From Nitrospirota bacterium (GTDB lineage: Bacteria > Nitrospinota_A > UBA7883 > JACRGQ01), in contig JAJRYD010000021.1 in assembly GCA_024275955.1 (NCBI GenBank), positions 1-21,225 of the forward strand: a stretch of DNA of 21,225 nt, written 5' to 3'. Made by a program: the position numbers and the translations under genes. This document shows, piece after piece, positions 4,884 through 11,689 of this stretch. The notes under the pieces were generated by a model. It was not told the origin of the DNA, ran no database searches, and saw only the letters and a program-made list of their open reading frames with translations. Numbering within the stretch: the first letter of the stretch is position 1; every line of letters begins with the position of its first letter.

Positions 4884-5802
4884 GCGGTTTTTCGAATGTT
4901 CCCCGAAGCGGTATACGGTAAGAGCCGTCCGGCCTCAGCAGTTTTGTATTAACAGATAAAACCGTTTTTAAAATTCCTGACGGTTTAGAAATCACAATAA
5001 ATCCGCTCAAAGGAGTTTTCTCCATCCGTTTTGCGAGCATGGTGGTAACTTTTAGGTTCACCCTGCCAAGCTTAGTCTCGGCAAAACAGTTTTTCGTTGT
5101 CAGCTTTCGTTTGTGTACCGTTACCTTGCAGGTAGCTTCTTTTGGCGAGATCATCTTACCAAGATTGCCACCGGGGAAAAGGCTGTCCAGCTTAAGATCG
5201 AAAAAAGCAAACTTTATCTCGCCTTCCAGTTTTTGAATATCTCCTTCTGGCACGGTAAACCTGCCGCTGGAAGTTAAAAAAATATCTACAGGGAGTTCCC
5301 CTTTTTCCGGTATTAACGCTTTATGGATAGGAAATTTTACCGACTCTATATCTATCTCCACTTTCCCACCTTTTTCGAACCTACCGGCAAAATCTAGCGT
5401 TAGCTCTCCGCCCTCTTTCTCCGCGTAAAAACGGAGACTGGGACTGCCTTTTAAAAGAGAAAAAACAAGCAGACGAACTTTAAGATAATCGACATTCCCA
5501 TTAAGAGCCGGTCCGAGATTATTCACCCAAAGGTTTTCAAAAGTGAGGCCAGACGGAAATGAAAAACCTGTTTTCCCGATTTTTAGGGTTATACCTGCCT
5601 TATCATACGCCATCTTTTTTAATTTATTTTCAAGTGGCATGGTATCGAAATTGACTATTGTAAAAAAAATAAGCGCGGCAATAAAAAGAGCCGAATAAAA
5701 TGCCAGTCTTTTTCCTTTGGCTTTTTCGCTTCTTTTAAAAATAGATTTGAGCTTATCGGCAATTCGGGCACGAACGCTGAATGTTTCTGTTACAGCCTGC
5801 AT
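4870..5802 (-). CDS. gspN: Type II secretion system protein GspN
   Basis: Last gene of the operon, 310 residues. It has a basic cytoplasmic N-terminus (KRSEKAKGKR), one membrane segment at about residues 31-49 (LAFYSALFIAALIFFTIVNF) and a long periplasmic beta-rich domain with AsmA-like character (repeated G-x-L-x-L/V patterns, a late SGFIVISKPSG, terminal LRGTFEKPRLDI). This is the GspN type usually found next to gspM in deltaproteobacterial T2SS operons. Its precise role in the inner-membrane platform is unclear. It starts 1 nt after the gspM stop (TAATATG), so it is translationally linked. The call is strengthened by its position. Confidence 0.85.
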   Translation of the reverse strand: MQAVTETFSVRARIADKLKSIFKRSEKAKGKRLAFYSALFIAALIFFTIVNFDTMPLENKLKKMAYDKAGITLKIGKTGFSFPSGLTFENLWVNNLGPALNGNVDYLKVRLLVFSLLKGSPSLRFYAEKEGGELTLDFAGRFEKGGKVEIDIESVKFPIHKALIPEKGELPVDIFLTSSGRFTVPEGDIQKLEGEIKFAFFDLKLDSLFPGGNLGKMISPKEATCKVTVHKRKLTTKNCFAETKLGRVNLKVTTMLAKRMEKTPLSGFIVISKPSGILKTVLSVNTKLLRPDGSYRIPLRGTFEKPRLDI

Positions 5803-7572: not shown

Positions 7573-8499
7573 CTAGAGAACCCTGTAGTAAAGAAGTTTT
7601 GCCCTGTTGCTACTCAATCTTTTGTAAACCGCCTTAACCGTTCTAGTCACTTCGCCGGCGGTAATTGTAGATTCAACCGAAAACGTGCTGGAGCCAAAAG
7701 TTATCTTCGCAGTTATATCAGTCCAGAATGCCGTATCCATGCCTGCTATAACATCTTTTACCTCATTGAGATTTTTAAAAGGCATTTCGCTTCGAGCCTC
7801 TAAAATATCGGTAGCAATAGCTGTGGTAATTTCATCGCTGAGCGCCATCAGCAGTTCCCAAGAAGCGGTATTTATATTTATCCGCGCGTCGCTGGGCGAG
7901 ACTGTTAGGTGAGGAGCCAAAAAGGTAAATGCTTTCTGCGTAACGCCGTTTACCCGCTTTAGCTCCTCAATGGAGTCGAGCTTGCCGTTCTTGCAAGGGT
8001 AAGGCATCGGAAGACCGCTGTAAAAGCCATATTCGTATTCTCCCGAATCGTTTTTATCGAGCCAATCTATTACCGCGTCGGCTATCGTTTCGTCAAGATT
8101 AAGATTAGCAAGAAGTCTTTTGAAAATAGCCAAAAGTTTTTGATTAGGTTCGTCGCTAGTGGTCTCTACAAGATAGTTGAGGTTCAGCTTTCCCGACTCA
8201 TCCCTGATGTTCACAAAGGCAAAGTTATCGCCAAACGGAACAGGAATCGTCTGCGCCCATTGTTCCCCAAGATGGTCGGTGCCACCCCCATCTTTTAGAT
8301 CCTGCAATATTATTTCGCGGCCTGCCTGTGCGCCGGCTCTGGCGGCGGTAGTAGCGGTAACATCATCACGAAAGGAAGCGGCAATCGAATAATCTACATA
8401 CGTTCCAAAAAGAAAGTCGGTAACAGTAATTGTCAGCATAACGACGACCAGCAGTGTCAGCACCAGAACCGCTCCCGATTCGTCTCTCAGCTTACGCAT
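7573..8499 (-). CDS. gspK: Type II secretion pseudopilin GspK
   Basis: Large minor pseudopilin that caps the pseudopilus tip with GspI and GspJ, 308 residues. The leader is short, 9 residues (MRKLRDESG), followed by AVLVLTLLVVVM. As expected for GspK, mature position 5 is not glutamate. The membrane helix spans about 11-30. The large periplasmic domain carries the T2SSK features RDESGKLNLNYL, AVIDWLDKND and helix-hairpin-helix-like ININTASWELLMAL. The normal leader here contrasts with the very long leaders of H, I and J. The start overlaps the gspJ 3' end by 8 nt. Confidence 0.93.
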   Translation of the reverse strand: MRKLRDESGAVLVLTLLVVVMLTITVTDFLFGTYVDYSIAASFRDDVTATTAARAGAQAGREIILQDLKDGGGTDHLGEQWAQTIPVPFGDNFAFVNIRDESGKLNLNYLVETTSDEPNQKLLAIFKRLLANLNLDETIADAVIDWLDKNDSGEYEYGFYSGLPMPYPCKNGKLDSIEELKRVNGVTQKAFTFLAPHLTVSPSDARININTASWELLMALSDEITTAIATDILEARSEMPFKNLNEVKDVIAGMDTAFWTDITAKITFGSSTFSVESTITAGEVTRTVKAVYKRLSSNRAKLLYYRVL

Positions 8500-9364
8500 A
8501 GTTCGGCAACCTCACGACAGCGCTGAAAAAATAATCCCGCCTCCCGTCGTTAAGAGTAAGTTCGATCAAAACCAGTTTTGGCATTATCTTTTTTGCTTTT
8601 GAATCCCAGCCGTCTATCCATCCTTCCGTTTGGTTCTGGTAATATCTTATTTTCAATTCGCTCACCAGCTCCGTTATCTCGAACGAAATACCCCCAAGCT
8701 CTACGCTTGCTTCGATAACATCTGATTCTCTTCTCATCAAGACTTCCGCCCCCTCAGATGGAACGACAAAGTAATAGCCTATTTCCGACTGGTCTGTTAC
8801 AGGCCTGTTCGGGCGATAATATAGATGCGTAAAAGCGGTGAAGTGTATTTCGTCATGGAATTTTCCATCGCTGGTTCTCGTTTTTCCTAGAAACGCTCCT
8901 CTCTTGCTCTTTTCCAGCAATGTCGCCGACGATAGGTCTTTGCTCATCCTTTTAACGATAAACCTTCCAACCTGCTGAACATCCATTCTTGTTTTTGCGC
9001 TTTGCCCAGCCGAAAGAGTGTTGGTAAGCGTGCCGTAAATAAAACTGAAAATGATACCGAATATGGCGATGGAGATTAGAATCTCTATCAACGTAAACCC
9101 CATACTCGGCATGAAGGCGGTAGTGCCGTTGGCAGTTCTCGCAGGCGGCCGCGCTCGGCGTAGAGGCCGTAGCACGGCAGGCGGTAGCCGCAACGCTATA
9201 GGTATGGTCTTTTGCATTTCTACAAAAAGCTTGCTTACCGCTTGCGAGAAGCAGACCCGCAGTGCGGGCGTTTGAAGGCGAGGCGCTAATAGCGTGCTAC
9301 CGTATGCTACCTTGCCATTACAAAGCCCTCTAGAAAACGGGACAATCTTTTTTCCAAACATCAT
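8492..9364 (-). CDS. gspJ: Type II secretion pseudopilin GspJ with 89-residue repeat-derived leader
   Basis: Minor pseudopilin of the tip complex, 290 residues from ATG 9364. The prepilin-peptidase site is SMG|FTLIEILISI, giving a mature protein of about 201 residues with Glu5 present and a normal GspJ body (FIVKRMSKDLSSA, then RRDYFFSAVV at the end). The 89-residue leader is about ten times the usual length. Residues ~26-86 are encoded by the palindromic repeat family (RVCFSQAVSKLFVEMQKT). ATG 9364 overlaps the stop of the upstream 113-codon ORF (ATGA), with AAGAGG just before it. An in-frame ATG at 9112 (MPSMG|FTLIE) would give a 5-residue leader but has no Shine-Dalgarno, so the true start is uncertain. 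Confidence 0.88.
   Translation of the reverse strand: MMFGKKIVPFSRGLCNGKVAYGSTLLAPRLQTPALRVCFSQAVSKLFVEMQKTIPIALRLPPAVLRPLRRARPPARTANGTTAFMPSMGFTLIEILISIAIFGIIFSFIYGTLTNTLSAGQSAKTRMDVQQVGRFIVKRMSKDLSSATLLEKSKRGAFLGKTRTSDGKFHDEIHFTAFTHLYYRPNRPVTDQSEIGYYFVVPSEGAEVLMRRESDVIEASVELGGISFEITELVSELKIRYYQNQTEGWIDGWDSKAKKIMPKLVLIELTLNDGRRDYFFSAVVRLPNYA
9101..9295 (-). repeat. Palindromic repeat unit inside the gspJ leader
   Basis: It contains the full unit 9147-9268 (~122 bp) plus flanking modules. On the + strand the core is TACCGCTTGCGAGAAGCAG followed by the palindrome CCCGCA-G-TGCGGG (9256-9268). It shares modules with the array at 9388-9666 and with the gspI and gspH leaders. On the gene-proximal side the module matching CTCGGCAT reaches to the codon before the cleavage-site glycine (GGG at 9098-9100). 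Confidence 0.88.
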
Positions 9365-9702
9365 GCCTCTTGTCTCAATCTCTGCCGGTAGCTGTTGCCC
9401 GTGGCAGATACGGTGCTTACCGCTTGCGAGAAGCAGACCCGCGGTGCGGGCCGCTCTGAATGTGGGGCCGGTAGCCGCAACGCTATAGGCATGGTCTTTT
9501 GCATTTCTATAAAAAGCTTGTTTACCGCTTGCGAGAAGCAGACCCGCGGTGCGGGCCGCTCTGAATGTGGGGCCGGTAGCCGCAACGCTATAGGCATGGT
9601 CTTTTGCATTTCTATAAAAAGCTTGTTTACCGCTTGCGAGAAGCAGACCCGCAGTGCGGGCCGCGGGTGATAGATAAAGTTTATTATTTCTCTTCTCATC
9701 AT
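9361..9702 (-). CDS. Repeat-built ORF between gspI and gspJ (possible displaced gspJ leader)
   Basis: A 113-codon ORF made mostly of two full and one partial copy of a 35-residue repeat (RVCFSQAVNKLFIEMQKT, then PIALRLPAPHSERPAP). It begins with MMRREIINFIYH at ATG 9702, whose codons overlap the gspI stop (ATGATGA), and ends with a TGA overlapping gspJ ATG 9364. No known domain is seen and a dedicated function is not assumed. The start MMRRE at a coupled gspI-gspJ junction is what one would expect of an original gspJ start codon, so this ORF may be the 5' part of the gspJ leader. Repeat expansion would have put it out of frame (the frames differ by 338 nt), with gspJ now reinitiated by coupling. 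It may be translated without functional consequence. Confidence 0.5.
   Translation of the reverse strand: MMRREIINFIYHPRPALRVCFSQAVNKLFIEMQKTMPIALRLPAPHSERPAPRVCFSQAVNKLFIEMQKTMPIALRLPAPHSERPAPRVCFSQAVSTVSATGNSYRQRLRQEA
9388..9666 (-). repeat. Tandem array of 105 bp repeat
   Basis: CGCTTGCGAG begins at 9421, 9526 and 9631, an exact 105 bp period (35 codons). The two complete units are almost identical and the third is partial, ending at the CCCGCAGTGCGGG palindrome. A degenerate piece lies at 9388-9420. The orientation matches all other copies in the gsp operon. The unit is shorter than the 122 bp form in gspJ because the segment between GGCCGCTC and GGTAGCCGC is reduced. Confidence 0.95.
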
Positions 9703-10373
9703 TTTATCGCGTAGTCTTCAAGTTTATAGATTTCGCTATCGCCATGCTTTACTTCCACCACGACAAGCCGGACATTTTCAAACTCGGTTTCTGTTATCGT
9801 TCTACGAAGTCTAAAGCGCGGGTACCGCTCATCCTCCAGCCACTCTCCCTGAACTATCGGCAGGTTAGGCTCGATTGCGATGAGCGCTACCCTTTCGTTC
9901 GCCAGCATTACCGCCGAGGTAAGTATCTCGCTTTGGGAAGATGTTACAAGAGTACGGTTAAAAACCGTCAGCAGAGTTACAAGCACTATGCTTATGATAG
10001 AAATAGATATCACTATCTCTATAAGCGTAAATCCCCCCACGCTTAGCGCAGAGCCGGTTTTCGCTGGCGGTATAAATTCTCTTTTTAACTTTAAAAAATA
10101 ATCGCCCCGCACCGCTGTTGCCTGACGGCGAGACACTGATGGCACGGCACTCATAATACGGGCCGCGCTTAGCGCAGAGGCAGTAGCCGTAGTGCGGTAG
10201 ATACGGTCTTCCGTATTTTTACAAAAAGTTTGTTTACCGCTTGCGAGAAGCGAACCGGCAGTGCCGGCCGCGCTTAGCGCAGAAGCGGTAGCACGGTAGG
10301 CAGTTGCCGCACGCGGTAGATAAAGTTTATTGCCGTTGTGAAACTCCGATTGGGCTGTGGCAGTTTCATACAT
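9699..10373 (-). CDS. gspI: Type II secretion pseudopilin GspI with 114-residue repeat-derived leader
   Basis: Minor pseudopilin of the tip complex, 224 residues. The prepilin-peptidase site is SVGG|FTLIEIVISI, giving a mature protein of 110 residues, normal for GspI, with Glu5 and the conserved MLANERVALI-type region after the helix. The leader is 114 residues, Ala/Thr/Ser/Arg-rich, built from at least three repeat modules (SLLASGKQTF, TATASALSAA). ATG 10373 overlaps the gspH stop by 1 nt (TAATG), which supports this distal start through translational coupling. A GTG three codons before the mature Phe (V112) and an ATG at codon 74 are possible internal starts without a clear ribosome site. 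Confidence 0.87.
   Translation of the reverse strand: MYETATAQSEFHNGNKLYLPRAATAYRATASALSAAGTAGSLLASGKQTFCKNTEDRIYRTTATASALSAARIMSAVPSVSRRQATAVRGDYFLKLKREFIPPAKTGSALSVGGFTLIEIVISISIISIVLVTLLTVFNRTLVTSSQSEILTSAVMLANERVALIAIEPNLPIVQGEWLEDERYPRFRLRRTITETEFENVRLVVVEVKHGDSEIYKLEDYAIK
10038..10345 (-). repeat. Palindromic repeat units inside the gspI leader
   Basis: At least three modules. One starts at 10038 with CACGCTTAGCGCAGAG. A full unit lies at 10161-10267. A partial one starts at 10266 with GGCCGCGCTTAGCGCAGAAG. The palindrome at 10255-10267 is CCGGCA-G-TGCCGG, a compensated variant of CCCGCA-G-TGCGGG in other copies. GCGCTTAGCGC occurs twice in full (10165 and 10270 areas). The module at 10038 directly abuts the two Gly codons (10032-10037) of the cleavage site. 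Confidence 0.88.
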
Positions 10374-11203
10374 TATACCGCTTTCCTCAAGCTTGGCTGG
10401 CAGTACGGTACCGGCAAGGCCTCTCCAATGTTGCGGGCTTCTATTTCCAGATATTCAAATTTTATATCGCCTTTTTTTATTTTTACTCTGCCGGTAAGAG
10501 GGTCGACTATAAGAGAGAGTTTTCTTTTCTTTTTATCGGCAAGCACTATTACCGCCTTTTCCGTAAAACCTTCGGCAAGAAAATGCAGGTTCGCCTCGTT
10601 GCCGACAATAGCACCGCTAAAGAGGGTGGTAAACTTTTCTATATGAATACCGTTGCTAAGCTTTTTGCCGGAAAACAGCGAGAAACTGATTCGCTCGAAT
10701 TGATCTTCGCTGTTTAAAAAGCTTGCGAAATAGTCTCCGCTTTTAGTATTAAAGCTTAACCGCAAAAGTTTTTGAGACGCGCCGGCCTGCGTATGCATAT
10801 AGGTGATGACGCGGGCGATGCGCCTGCCTTCGCTTGTCAGCTTCATAGCGCCGATGTTTCCGATTTTGGGAAGAGTGAATGCCGCAAAAAGGCTGATAAG
10901 AACGATTACGACAGTAAGCTCTATAAGGGTGAACCCGCCCGTAGCACGGGAGGCGGTGGTAGCAGTGCTATAGATATGGTCTTTCGCGTTTCTACTAAAA
11001 GCTTGTTTACCGCTTGCGAGAAACAGATACGCAGTGCGGGCCACGCTCGGCATAGAGGCTGTAGCACAGCCGGCACCTGCCGCACGCGGTAAATATGACC
11101 GTTTAATCTGAAAGAGTTTATCTGTCGCTTGCAAAAAGCAAACATGCAACAGGTGCGCCTGACGGCGAGGCGCTGGTTGTCCTATAAGCAAAACTTTTCT
11201 CAT
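10373..11203 (-). CDS. gspH: Type II secretion pseudopilin GspH with 90-residue repeat-derived leader
   Basis: Minor pseudopilin that joins the tip complex to the GspG filament, 276 residues. The prepilin-peptidase site is RATGG|FTLIELTVVIVL, giving a mature protein of 186 residues with Glu5 and a GspH-like body (MKLTSEGRRIARVITYMHTQA, late LIVDPLTGRVKI). The leader is 90 residues, starting MRKVLLIGQ, which looks like a native pseudopilin N-terminus. ATG 11203 has TAGG upstream and lies 36 nt after the gspG stop. No ATG or GTG lies in frame within ~35 codons of the cleavage site, so translation must pass through repeat sequence. The first repeat module is read as VCFLQATDKLF, the second in another frame as LASGKQAF. 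Confidence 0.88.
   Translation of the reverse strand: MRKVLLIGQPAPRRQAHLLHVCFLQATDKLFQIKRSYLPRAAGAGCATASMPSVARTAYLFLASGKQAFSRNAKDHIYSTATTASRATGGFTLIELTVVIVLISLFAAFTLPKIGNIGAMKLTSEGRRIARVITYMHTQAGASQKLLRLSFNTKSGDYFASFLNSEDQFERISFSLFSGKKLSNGIHIEKFTTLFSGAIVGNEANLHFLAEGFTEKAVIVLADKKKRKLSLIVDPLTGRVKIKKGDIKFEYLEIEARNIGEALPVPYCQPSLRKAV
10940..11175 (-). repeat. Palindromic repeat units inside the gspH leader
   Basis: Two units in tandem. One (10940-11040) contains TTTACCGCTTGCGAGAAACAG and GCAGTGCGGG. A more diverged one (11041-11175) contains TGTCGCTTGCAAAAAGC and ends in CGCCTGACGGCGAGGCGCT. The module GTAGCACGGGAGGCGGT begins one codon away from the cleavage-site glycines (10934-10939). Protein-level comparison with the gspI leader is extensive (YLPRAA, ATAS, LASGKQ, IY.T). 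Confidence 0.87.
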
Positions 11204-11239: not shown

Positions 11240-11689
11240 CTATTCCAGATCCCAAATGTTGATATCGGCGTTTTTGCCTTCTCCGCCTTCCTCACGGTCG
11301 GCCCCGTAAGAAGAGAGGTCGAACTCGCCATGCTCGCCCGGTGAAAGGTAGATATAGTCGTTGCTCCATGGGTCTTGCGGGATTTTCGCAAGGTAGCCGC
11401 CGTCCTTAAAGTTCGTCGCCCTTTCTCCCTGCTCCGGCGGTGTAATAAGCGCGCTTAAGGTTTGGTCGGTAGAAGGATAAAACCCGTTATCTATTTTAAA
11501 AAGGCTTAGCGCGCCGTCCAGCTGTTTAATCTGCACTGCCGCTTTTGTGCGCCTTGCTTCCTCCGGTCTGCTTACTATTTTTGGAATTATTATTCCAGCT
11601 AGGATGGAGAGGATTATCACCACCACCATTATTTCTATCAGAGTAAAGCCGTCTCTTTCCCGTAACTTTGCATATCTTTTGATTTCCAT
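11240..11689 (-). CDS. gspG: Type II secretion major pseudopilin GspG
   Basis: Main subunit of the pseudopilus, 149 residues. The leader is a normal 14 residues (MEIKRYAKLRERDG) with cleavage before FTLIEIMVVVIILSILAG and Glu5 present. The body is family-standard: RTKAAVQIKQLDGALSLFK, DNGFYPST, LITPPE, LAKIPQDPWSNDYIY and the calcium-site loop near the C-terminus (SSYGADREEGGEGKNADI). The strong ribosome site GGGAGG lies 6 nt before the ATG. It is the most conserved pseudopilin of the operon and carries no repeat, unlike gspH, gspI and gspJ downstream. Confidence 0.97.
   Translation of the reverse strand: MEIKRYAKLRERDGFTLIEIMVVVIILSILAGIIIPKIVSRPEEARRTKAAVQIKQLDGALSLFKIDNGFYPSTDQTLSALITPPEQGERATNFKDGGYLAKIPQDPWSNDYIYLSPGEHGEFDLSSYGADREEGGEGKNADINIWDLE

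What the first reader, a model, noticed from the sequence alone, without database searches (positions are those of the whole stretch)
9101..11203. Palindromic repeat family inserted in the cleavable leaders of three pseudopilin genes (gspH, gspI, gspJ)
Seen: the leaders of GspH, GspI and GspJ are 90, 114 and 89 residues, while GspG and GspK in the same operon have 14 and 9. The extra coding sequence is made of one family of ~105-122 bp repeats in the same orientation (core CGCTTGCGAGAAGC plus a 6+1+6 palindrome). Known: prepilin leaders are usually short and are removed by prepilin peptidase; Rickettsia palindromic elements are a precedent for repeats inserted in frame in genes. Inference: a selfish or regulatory repeat has colonised the one part of these proteins that is discarded after processing, so its cost at protein level is erased. 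I know of no described repeat with this target preference.
Basis: partly seen in the sequence, partly recalled or inferred. Interest (0 to 1): 0.88.

Follow-up and report, generated by a model that had tools for sequence, protein, structure and literature searches.

The report
Intergenic repeats filling three pseudopilin leaders
In this uncultured Nitrospinota bacterium, a family of short palindromic repeats that normally sits between genes also fills the start of three secretion-pilus genes, in the leader that the cell cuts off and discards; this looks like tolerance of passengers in throw-away protein sequence, not a repeat that seeks out leaders.

Summary
Between the start regions of gspH, gspI and gspJ and the codon for the Gly before the prepilin cut lie 267, 339 and 602 nt built almost wholly of one mosaic palindromic repeat family; relatives have 11-77 nt from the previous stop to the cut. 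In gspH and gspI the repeats end 2 nt before that codon. In each array exactly one of three frames is free of stops, and it is the pilin's. GspH has no ATG/GTG/TTG within 36 codons of the cut, so its long leader is unavoidable if the gene works; gspJ could still start 4-5 codons upstream.
A model of the family finds 54 further copies in the genome: 49 intergenic, the other 5 touching only the 3' ends of genes, many 1-16 nt from a stop codon. Eight prepilins have ordinary leaders without repeats. No copies were found in 23 other Nitrospinota genomes.
Best reading: a REP/BIME-like, gene-end-associated repeat family spread locally into a packed operon where leaders were much of the dispensable DNA; selection kept the arrays readable. 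A Syntrophobacterales genome shows an unrelated high-copy repeat inside a forced 61-codon pseudopilin leader, so leaders may be a wider refuge for repeats.

The parts
10937..11190 (-). repeat array in the gspH leader: two full elements (11068-11155, diverged; 10951-11040), preceded by a GCGCCT-CGCCGTC-AGGCGC palindrome
   Evidence: covariance model R1 63.5 and 99.2 bits; R2 hits 11041-11119 and 10947-11005
10373..11203 (-). gspH; leader of 90 codons if started at ATG 11203, at least 37 whatever common start codon is used; prepilin site GGFTLIE at 10936
   Evidence: ORF, N_methyl, start-codon listing
10037..10333 (-). repeat array in the gspI leader: 3'-half element 10269-10333, full element 10178-10267, variant element 10037-10097
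   Evidence: R1 95.6 bits; R2 28.0, 49.3 and 21.1 bits
9699..10373 (-). gspI; leader of 114 codons from ATG 10373 (which overlaps the gspH stop and has GAGG upstream), or 27 from a GTG; prepilin site at 10034
9361..9702 (-). repeat-only ORF of 113 codons between gspI and gspJ, overlapping both by ATGA; starts with MMRRE, resembling the native gspJ start of relative G006 (MMMRDLR)
9383..9660 (-). two tandem 105-nt elements (9571-9660, 9466-9555; 99% identical) and one truncated copy (9383-9450)
   Evidence: R1 111.8, 108.2, 37.8 bits; identity
   Evidence: R1 111.4 bits, R2 48.1 bits; RNA fold z = -2.9
8492..9364 (-). gspJ; ATG 9364 or 9361 (GAGG just upstream) gives an 87-89-residue leader, ATG 9112 a 5-residue one; prepilin site at 9100
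11240..11689 (-). gspG, 14-residue leader, no repeat (internal control)
7573..8499 (-). gspK, short leader, no repeat (internal control)

Best explanation
The repeats belong to a genome-specific family of mosaic palindromic elements about 100-140 nt long that works like REP/BIME elements: mainly extragenic, made of short hairpin modules, often placed just behind stop codons (shown). In the packed gsp operon, where spacers are about 0-40 nt, elements entered the leader-coding stretches of gspH, gspI and gspJ, multiplied there locally, and displaced the native leaders up to the Gly(-1) codon (position and copy relatedness shown; order of events inferred). Because a prepilin leader lies in the cytoplasm and is cut off by prepilin peptidase, these arrays cost little at protein level; selection only had to keep a start codon in phase and the frame free of stops (inferred from the frames). 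GspH and probably GspI are then made with long repeat-encoded leaders; GspJ is made either from ATG 9364 by reinitiation behind the repeat-only ORF or from an ATG close to the cut. No leader-seeking insertion is needed.
For: Stop-to-cleavage gaps of 304, 339 and about 600 nt here against 11-77 nt in relatives and a median of 32 nt over 160 junctions in 65 loci. Most gsp copies are closer to each other (76-99%; one diverged copy about 60%) than to outside copies (49-71%), pointing to local spread. Census: 62 R2 hits at E < 0.01, 54 outside the operon, 49 intergenic by a codon-hexamer gene caller and 5 overlapping only the 3' end of an opposite-strand gene; 14 of 28 opposite-strand stop codons lie 1-16 nt from the element's 3' end. 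Stops per frame over the arrays: gspH 0/2/6, gspI 0/6/4, gspJ from ATG 9364 0/6/3, the pilin's frame being the open one each time; over the whole 602 nt the gspJ-phase frame is also open. Stop-free stretches of those lengths make up 3.8%, 2.7% and 3.9% of element-bearing intergenic DNA, product about 4e-5; with only the 'which of three frames' argument, 1/27. Nearest start codon to the gspH cut is 37 codons away. Leaders are cytoplasmic, of variable length and removed by the peptidase (PMC10191384).
Against: The gsp copies share ancestry and their consensus has two open frames out of three, so the open frames are weaker evidence than the product suggests. A hexamer coding score does not favour the repeat leaders and picks later starts. 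About 30 nt of leader each at three neighbouring genes is a tiny target: if the three entries were independent, leaders would be far over-represented relative to intergenic DNA, which would favour targeting; the relatedness of the copies is the argument that they were not independent. No close relative with a partly filled operon was available, so the order of events is inferred.
Confidence: 0.66

Rival explanations
1. Ordinary intergenic repeats, short leaders: the arrays are untranslated spacers and the real starts lie just before the cut; the long leaders are an annotation effect.
For: Elsewhere the family is intergenic; gspJ has ATG at 4-5 codons and gspI GTG at 3 and 27 codons; the hexamer caller trims the repeats.
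Against: gspH has no ATG, GTG or TTG within 36 codons; gspI's GTG at 3 codons would leave almost no leader; the pilin frame is open through all three arrays while the other frames are not; gspI's ATG 10373 has a GAGG site and overlaps the gspH stop.
Confidence: 0.2
2. Leader-seeking selfish element: the repeat recognises a feature of prepilin genes, for example the GG(G/A)TTYAC cleavage-site DNA, and inserts next to it.
For: Element 3' ends stop 2 nt before the Gly(-1) codon in gspH and gspI, and a degenerate 3' hairpin abuts it in gspJ; three of three adjacent minor pseudopilins are hit.
Against: 54 other copies, none at a prepilin site; eight GFTLxE sites in the genome without repeats; DNA behind the 3' hairpin of other copies shows no shared target (by eye).
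Confidence: 0.06
3. Regulatory use: the hairpins act in the polycistronic mRNA to set the low stoichiometry of the minor pseudopilins H, I and J relative to G, by ribosome stalling, processing or reinitiation.
For: Only the H, I and J junctions carry arrays; two of three tested gsp units fold better than all 200 shuffles (z -2.9 and -3.1); ATGA overlaps fit reinitiation; E. coli REPs within 15 nt of a stop codon lower translation (PMC12306157, citing earlier work).
Against: The third unit folds no better than shuffles (z +0.4); no covariation test was made; no Rfam family; not found in relatives, which have the same operon.
Confidence: 0.15
4. Assembly artefact in a metagenome-derived contig.
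For: The genome is fragmented (56 contigs) and near-identical tandem 105-nt copies are prone to mis-assembly; several copies lie near contig ends.
Against: Three separated arrays differ by 20-40%, coding frames on both sides are intact, and the family is seen in more than 50 other places of the same genome.
Confidence: 0.04

Closest known systems
REP elements and BIMEs with RAYT transposases (enterobacteria, pseudomonads)
   Same: short hairpin modules in mosaic clusters, mostly extragenic, enriched just behind stop codons; the same genome has a true RAYT (NF047646, E 2.6e-24) flanked by inverted GTGGCACAGGC-N7-GCCTGTG repeats
   Different: the gsp family has other palindromes than the RAYT-flanking repeat, is longer (about 100-140 nt) and shows no constant GTAG/GTGG head; here it runs into coding leaders
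Rickettsia palindromic elements (RPE)
   Same: 105-146-nt palindromic repeats with open frames, found in frame inside conserved genes (reviewed in PMC2229807)
   Different: RPE insertions are reported in 19 reading frames of varied genes; this family is extragenic except at one operon and gene 3' ends, and the coding copies lie in a part removed from the mature protein
ERIC/IRU and 107-bp Correia elements with in-frame fusions
   Same: small non-autonomous repeats fused in frame to ORFs (PMC2229807)
   Different: no terminal inverted repeats or target duplications were seen here
Type 4 prepilins with long natural leaders (T4b pilins, Streptococcus sanguinis major pilins)
   Same: long cytoplasmic leader removed by prepilin peptidase (PMC10191384)
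   Different: those leaders are not described there as made of dispersed repeats

Membership tests
REP/BIME | short imperfect palindromes able to form hairpins | tested here: met
   CCCGCAYTGCGGG-like and CCACGC..GCGTGG-like ends in most copies; fold z -2.9 and -3.1 in two of three gsp units, +0.4 in the third
REP/BIME | extragenic location | tested here: met
   49 of 54 copies outside the operon intergenic, 5 touch gene 3' ends; the gsp copies are the exception
REP/BIME | mosaic clusters of modules | tested here: met
   5' and 3' halves found apart and in new orders, tandem pairs
REP/BIME | constant GT(A/G)G or CGTC tag 5' of the palindrome | tested here: inconclusive
   GTGG, GTAG, ATAG or CTAG before the 5' palindrome in some copies, GCGG, AACG or other letters in the rest
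REP/BIME | cognate RAYT gene flanked by inverted copies of the same repeat | tested here: not met
   the RAYT on contig C11 is flanked by a different repeat, GTGGCACAGGC-N7-GCCTGTG; one family member lies about 0.4 kb away. A second RAYT-like gene on C29 was not resolved
Rickettsia palindromic elements | insertion in frame in many unrelated conserved genes | tested here: not met
   coding copies only in one operon and at gene 3' ends
MITE | terminal inverted repeats and target-site duplication | tested here: not met
   different palindromes at the two ends; no shared flanking duplication seen in the listed copies (by eye)

The most novel reading that the evidence does not exclude
Prepilin leaders are a general refuge for dispersed repeats: since everything before Gly(-1) is discarded, unrelated high-copy repeats are repeatedly read through as leader peptides in unrelated bacteria, and the repeat-encoded leaders here are really translated and cleaved. 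Besides this operon, a Syntrophobacterales pseudopilin with no start codon nearer than 61 codons has, inside that leader, a repeat with more than 40 further matches in its genome.
Probability: 0.35. Interest if true: 0.68.

Novelty: new variant of a known kind. Interest (0 to 1): 0.5.

Why it matters
It gives a natural test of how far a prepilin leader can be altered, and a simple principle: parts of proteins that are removed before the protein acts should collect selfish or neutral DNA in packed genomes, just as spacers do. It also warns gene annotators that very long prepilin leaders may be repeat-derived. The rule can be tested at scale in public genomes.

Tried and rejected
Target preference for prepilin genes: rejected by the genome census and by eight repeat-free prepilins. 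The gsp family as the RAYT-mobilised REP: the RAYT of contig C11 has its own, different repeat. One intragenic R1 hit on contig C8 (23.7 bits) lies in an uninterrupted DsbD-like gene and is taken as a false positive. Presence of the family in relatives: none among 23 other Nitrospinota genomes. Match to plasmids or Rfam: none. The Pfam P53 hit to the repeat-only ORF (E 5e-7) is read as chance similarity. Loci from Desulfonema limicola (L113), a Nitrospirae MAG (L117) and UBA6106 (L131) looked like further cases, but there the repeat overlaps only the edge of the leader or lies just before it, or a nearer start codon exists, so they are not counted. A first scan of named genomes with single-sequence GspD found nothing; an alignment of GspK worked.
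Full report
Where the window lies. The window is one whole contig of a 2.45-Mb, 56-contig genome (98% complete). The region is a type II secretion operon on the minus strand, with gspG, H, I, J and K at 11689-7573. NCBIfam models support the names of H, I and J weakly but in the right order (TIGR01708, TIGR01707, TIGR01711, each best or near best and below its curated cut-off); the prepilin cleavage motif is above its cut-off in all three.

The observation. The repeats are real, all on one strand, and far beyond chance. A model of the 90-nt conserved part (R1) finds clear copies in the window at 11068-11155, 10951-11040, 10178-10267, 9571-9660, 9466-9555, 9383-9450 (truncated) and 9179-9268; a second model of the 3' half (R2) adds 10269-10333 and 10037-10097. 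So the stretch before each cleavage site is almost entirely repeat: two elements in gspH, three in gspI, and at least four in the 602 nt between the gspI stop and the gspJ cut.

Relation to the genes. The distance from the stop codon of the gene before to the cleavage-site codon is 304, 339 and about 600 nt for H, I and J, computed from the coordinates. In relatives it is 11-77 nt (computed), and over 160 neighbouring pseudopilin pairs in 65 named loci the median is 32 nt, with 8 above 200 nt. The element 3' hairpin ends 2 nt before the Gly(-1) codon in gspH (18 of 19 nt match) and in gspI (16 of 17 nt match); in gspJ a degenerate hairpin, CATGCCGAGTATGG, abuts it, read by eye. The native start codons seem to lie upstream of the arrays: gspI ATG 10373 has GAGG upstream and overlaps the gspH stop, and the sequence after the gspI stop, ATGATGAGAAGAGAA (MMRRE), resembles the MMMRDLR start of gspJ in relative G006. 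For gspJ this native start is out of phase with the pilin (602 nt), and translation must restart, either at ATG 9364/9361, which overlaps the stop of the repeat-only ORF and follows GAGG, or at ATG 9112.

Are the long leaders translated? For gspH no ATG, GTG or TTG lies within 36 codons of the cut, so a leader of at least 37 residues is needed unless a rare start codon is used. In each array exactly one frame lacks stops and it is the pilin's: H 0/2/6, I 0/6/4, J from ATG 9364 0/6/3. In element-bearing intergenic DNA of the same genome, stretches of these lengths are open in 3.8%, 2.7% and 3.9% of positions, about 4e-5 together. This overstates the case because the gsp copies are related and their consensus has two open frames; the fully conservative figure, right frame in three of three, is 1/27. 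A few of 229 pseudopilin sites in other genomes also have no start within 36 codons (listings), so forced long leaders are uncommon but not unique.

What the repeat is. R2 was searched against the whole genome: 62 hits at E < 0.01, 54 of them outside this contig. A gene caller trained on codon hexamers from 240 kb of this genome places 49 of the 54 between genes; the other five overlap an opposite-strand gene by 18-39 nt at its 3' end. Of 28 cases with an opposite-strand gene on the element's 3' side, 14 have the stop codon within 16 nt. Eleven of the outside copies were used to build R2, so the rest are the independent part of this census. The family is therefore extragenic and gene-end-associated, as REP elements are in E. 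coli (PMC12306157). A random 240-kb sample held no exact core, so the close copies are concentrated in the gsp operon, and identity among most gsp copies exceeds identity to outside copies: local spread. The family was not found in 23 other Nitrospinota genomes.

Target preference. Eleven GFTLxE prepilin sites were recognised in the genome; three carry arrays, eight have leaders of 8-17 residues and none. With 54 copies elsewhere and none at a prepilin, there is no sign of a preference. The operon is packed, with spacers between about 0 and 40 nt, so leader codons were much of its dispensable DNA; this, with local spread, is enough to explain the pattern. I could not exclude that three independent entries happened, which would be a strong over-representation.

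Mobilisation. The genome has a REP-associated tyrosine transposase on contig C11 (NF047646, 85.8 bits against a cut-off of 80) flanked by inverted GTGGCACAGGC-N7-GCCTGTG repeats, the arrangement that defines RAYT genes (PMC2817692). That repeat has another palindrome than the gsp family, although one gsp-family element lies about 0.4 kb away. So a REP system is present, but it is not shown to move this family.

A wider lead. In the Syntrophobacterales genome of locus L137 a pseudopilin has no common start codon nearer than 61 codons from the cut, and positions 104-193 of that leader match more than 40 other places of its genome at 74-97% identity. This is an unrelated repeat in an unrelated phylum. 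Three further candidates were weaker and are not counted. Two cases do not make a rule, but they make it testable.

Verdict. The repeats and the long ORF leaders are as described; the proposed leader-targeting element is not. What remains is a REP/BIME-like extragenic family that, in one packed operon, occupies the discarded leaders of three pseudopilins with the reading frame preserved. It works like known extragenic repeats that occasionally enter coding sequence, such as Rickettsia palindromic elements (PMC2229807), with the twist that the coding copies sit where the protein is thrown away. A search of open-access papers for prepilins together with extragenic repeats showed no report of this among the titles listed, which is weak evidence of novelty because subscription papers are not held.

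Noticed in passing
G000 genome-wide; e.g. L195 about 1990-2180, L051 about 5290-5450: A second, more abundant intergenic family, MITE-like, with inverted ends GGGRCTGTTKCC ... GGCAACAGCCCC; terminal words found in about 15 intergenic regions of a 240-kb random sample.
   Followed up: partly
L195:1378-1972 (G000 contig C11): A true RAYT gene flanked by inverted GTGGCACAGGC-N7-GCCTGTG repeats in a Nitrospinota genome.
   Followed up: partly
9361-9702 (-): Repeat-only ORF that passes Pfam's cut-off for the P53 DNA-binding domain (E 5e-7); SQAVNKLFIEMQKTMPIALRL merely resembles a p53 segment, a likely source of false annotation.
   Followed up: partly
L137:56-238: Syntrophobacterales pseudopilin with a forced 61-codon leader holding a repeat with more than 40 further genomic matches.
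   Followed up: partly
L117:2780-2908; L131:2455-2604; L113:2821-2928; L134:3170-3269: Other pseudopilin leaders whose translations resemble dispersed-repeat peptides (PPIPPLVKGGKGGF, PPLPLRERVRVRG, FSIFDFRFSIYESRITN, IARSGATKQS); start codons ambiguous.
   Followed up: partly
G000: C29:112391, C11:49743, C24:26459, C39:6557, C38:7447: Five elements overlap the last 18-39 nt of an opposite-strand gene, so they seem to supply the C-terminal codons and possibly the stop codon of those genes.
   Followed up: no
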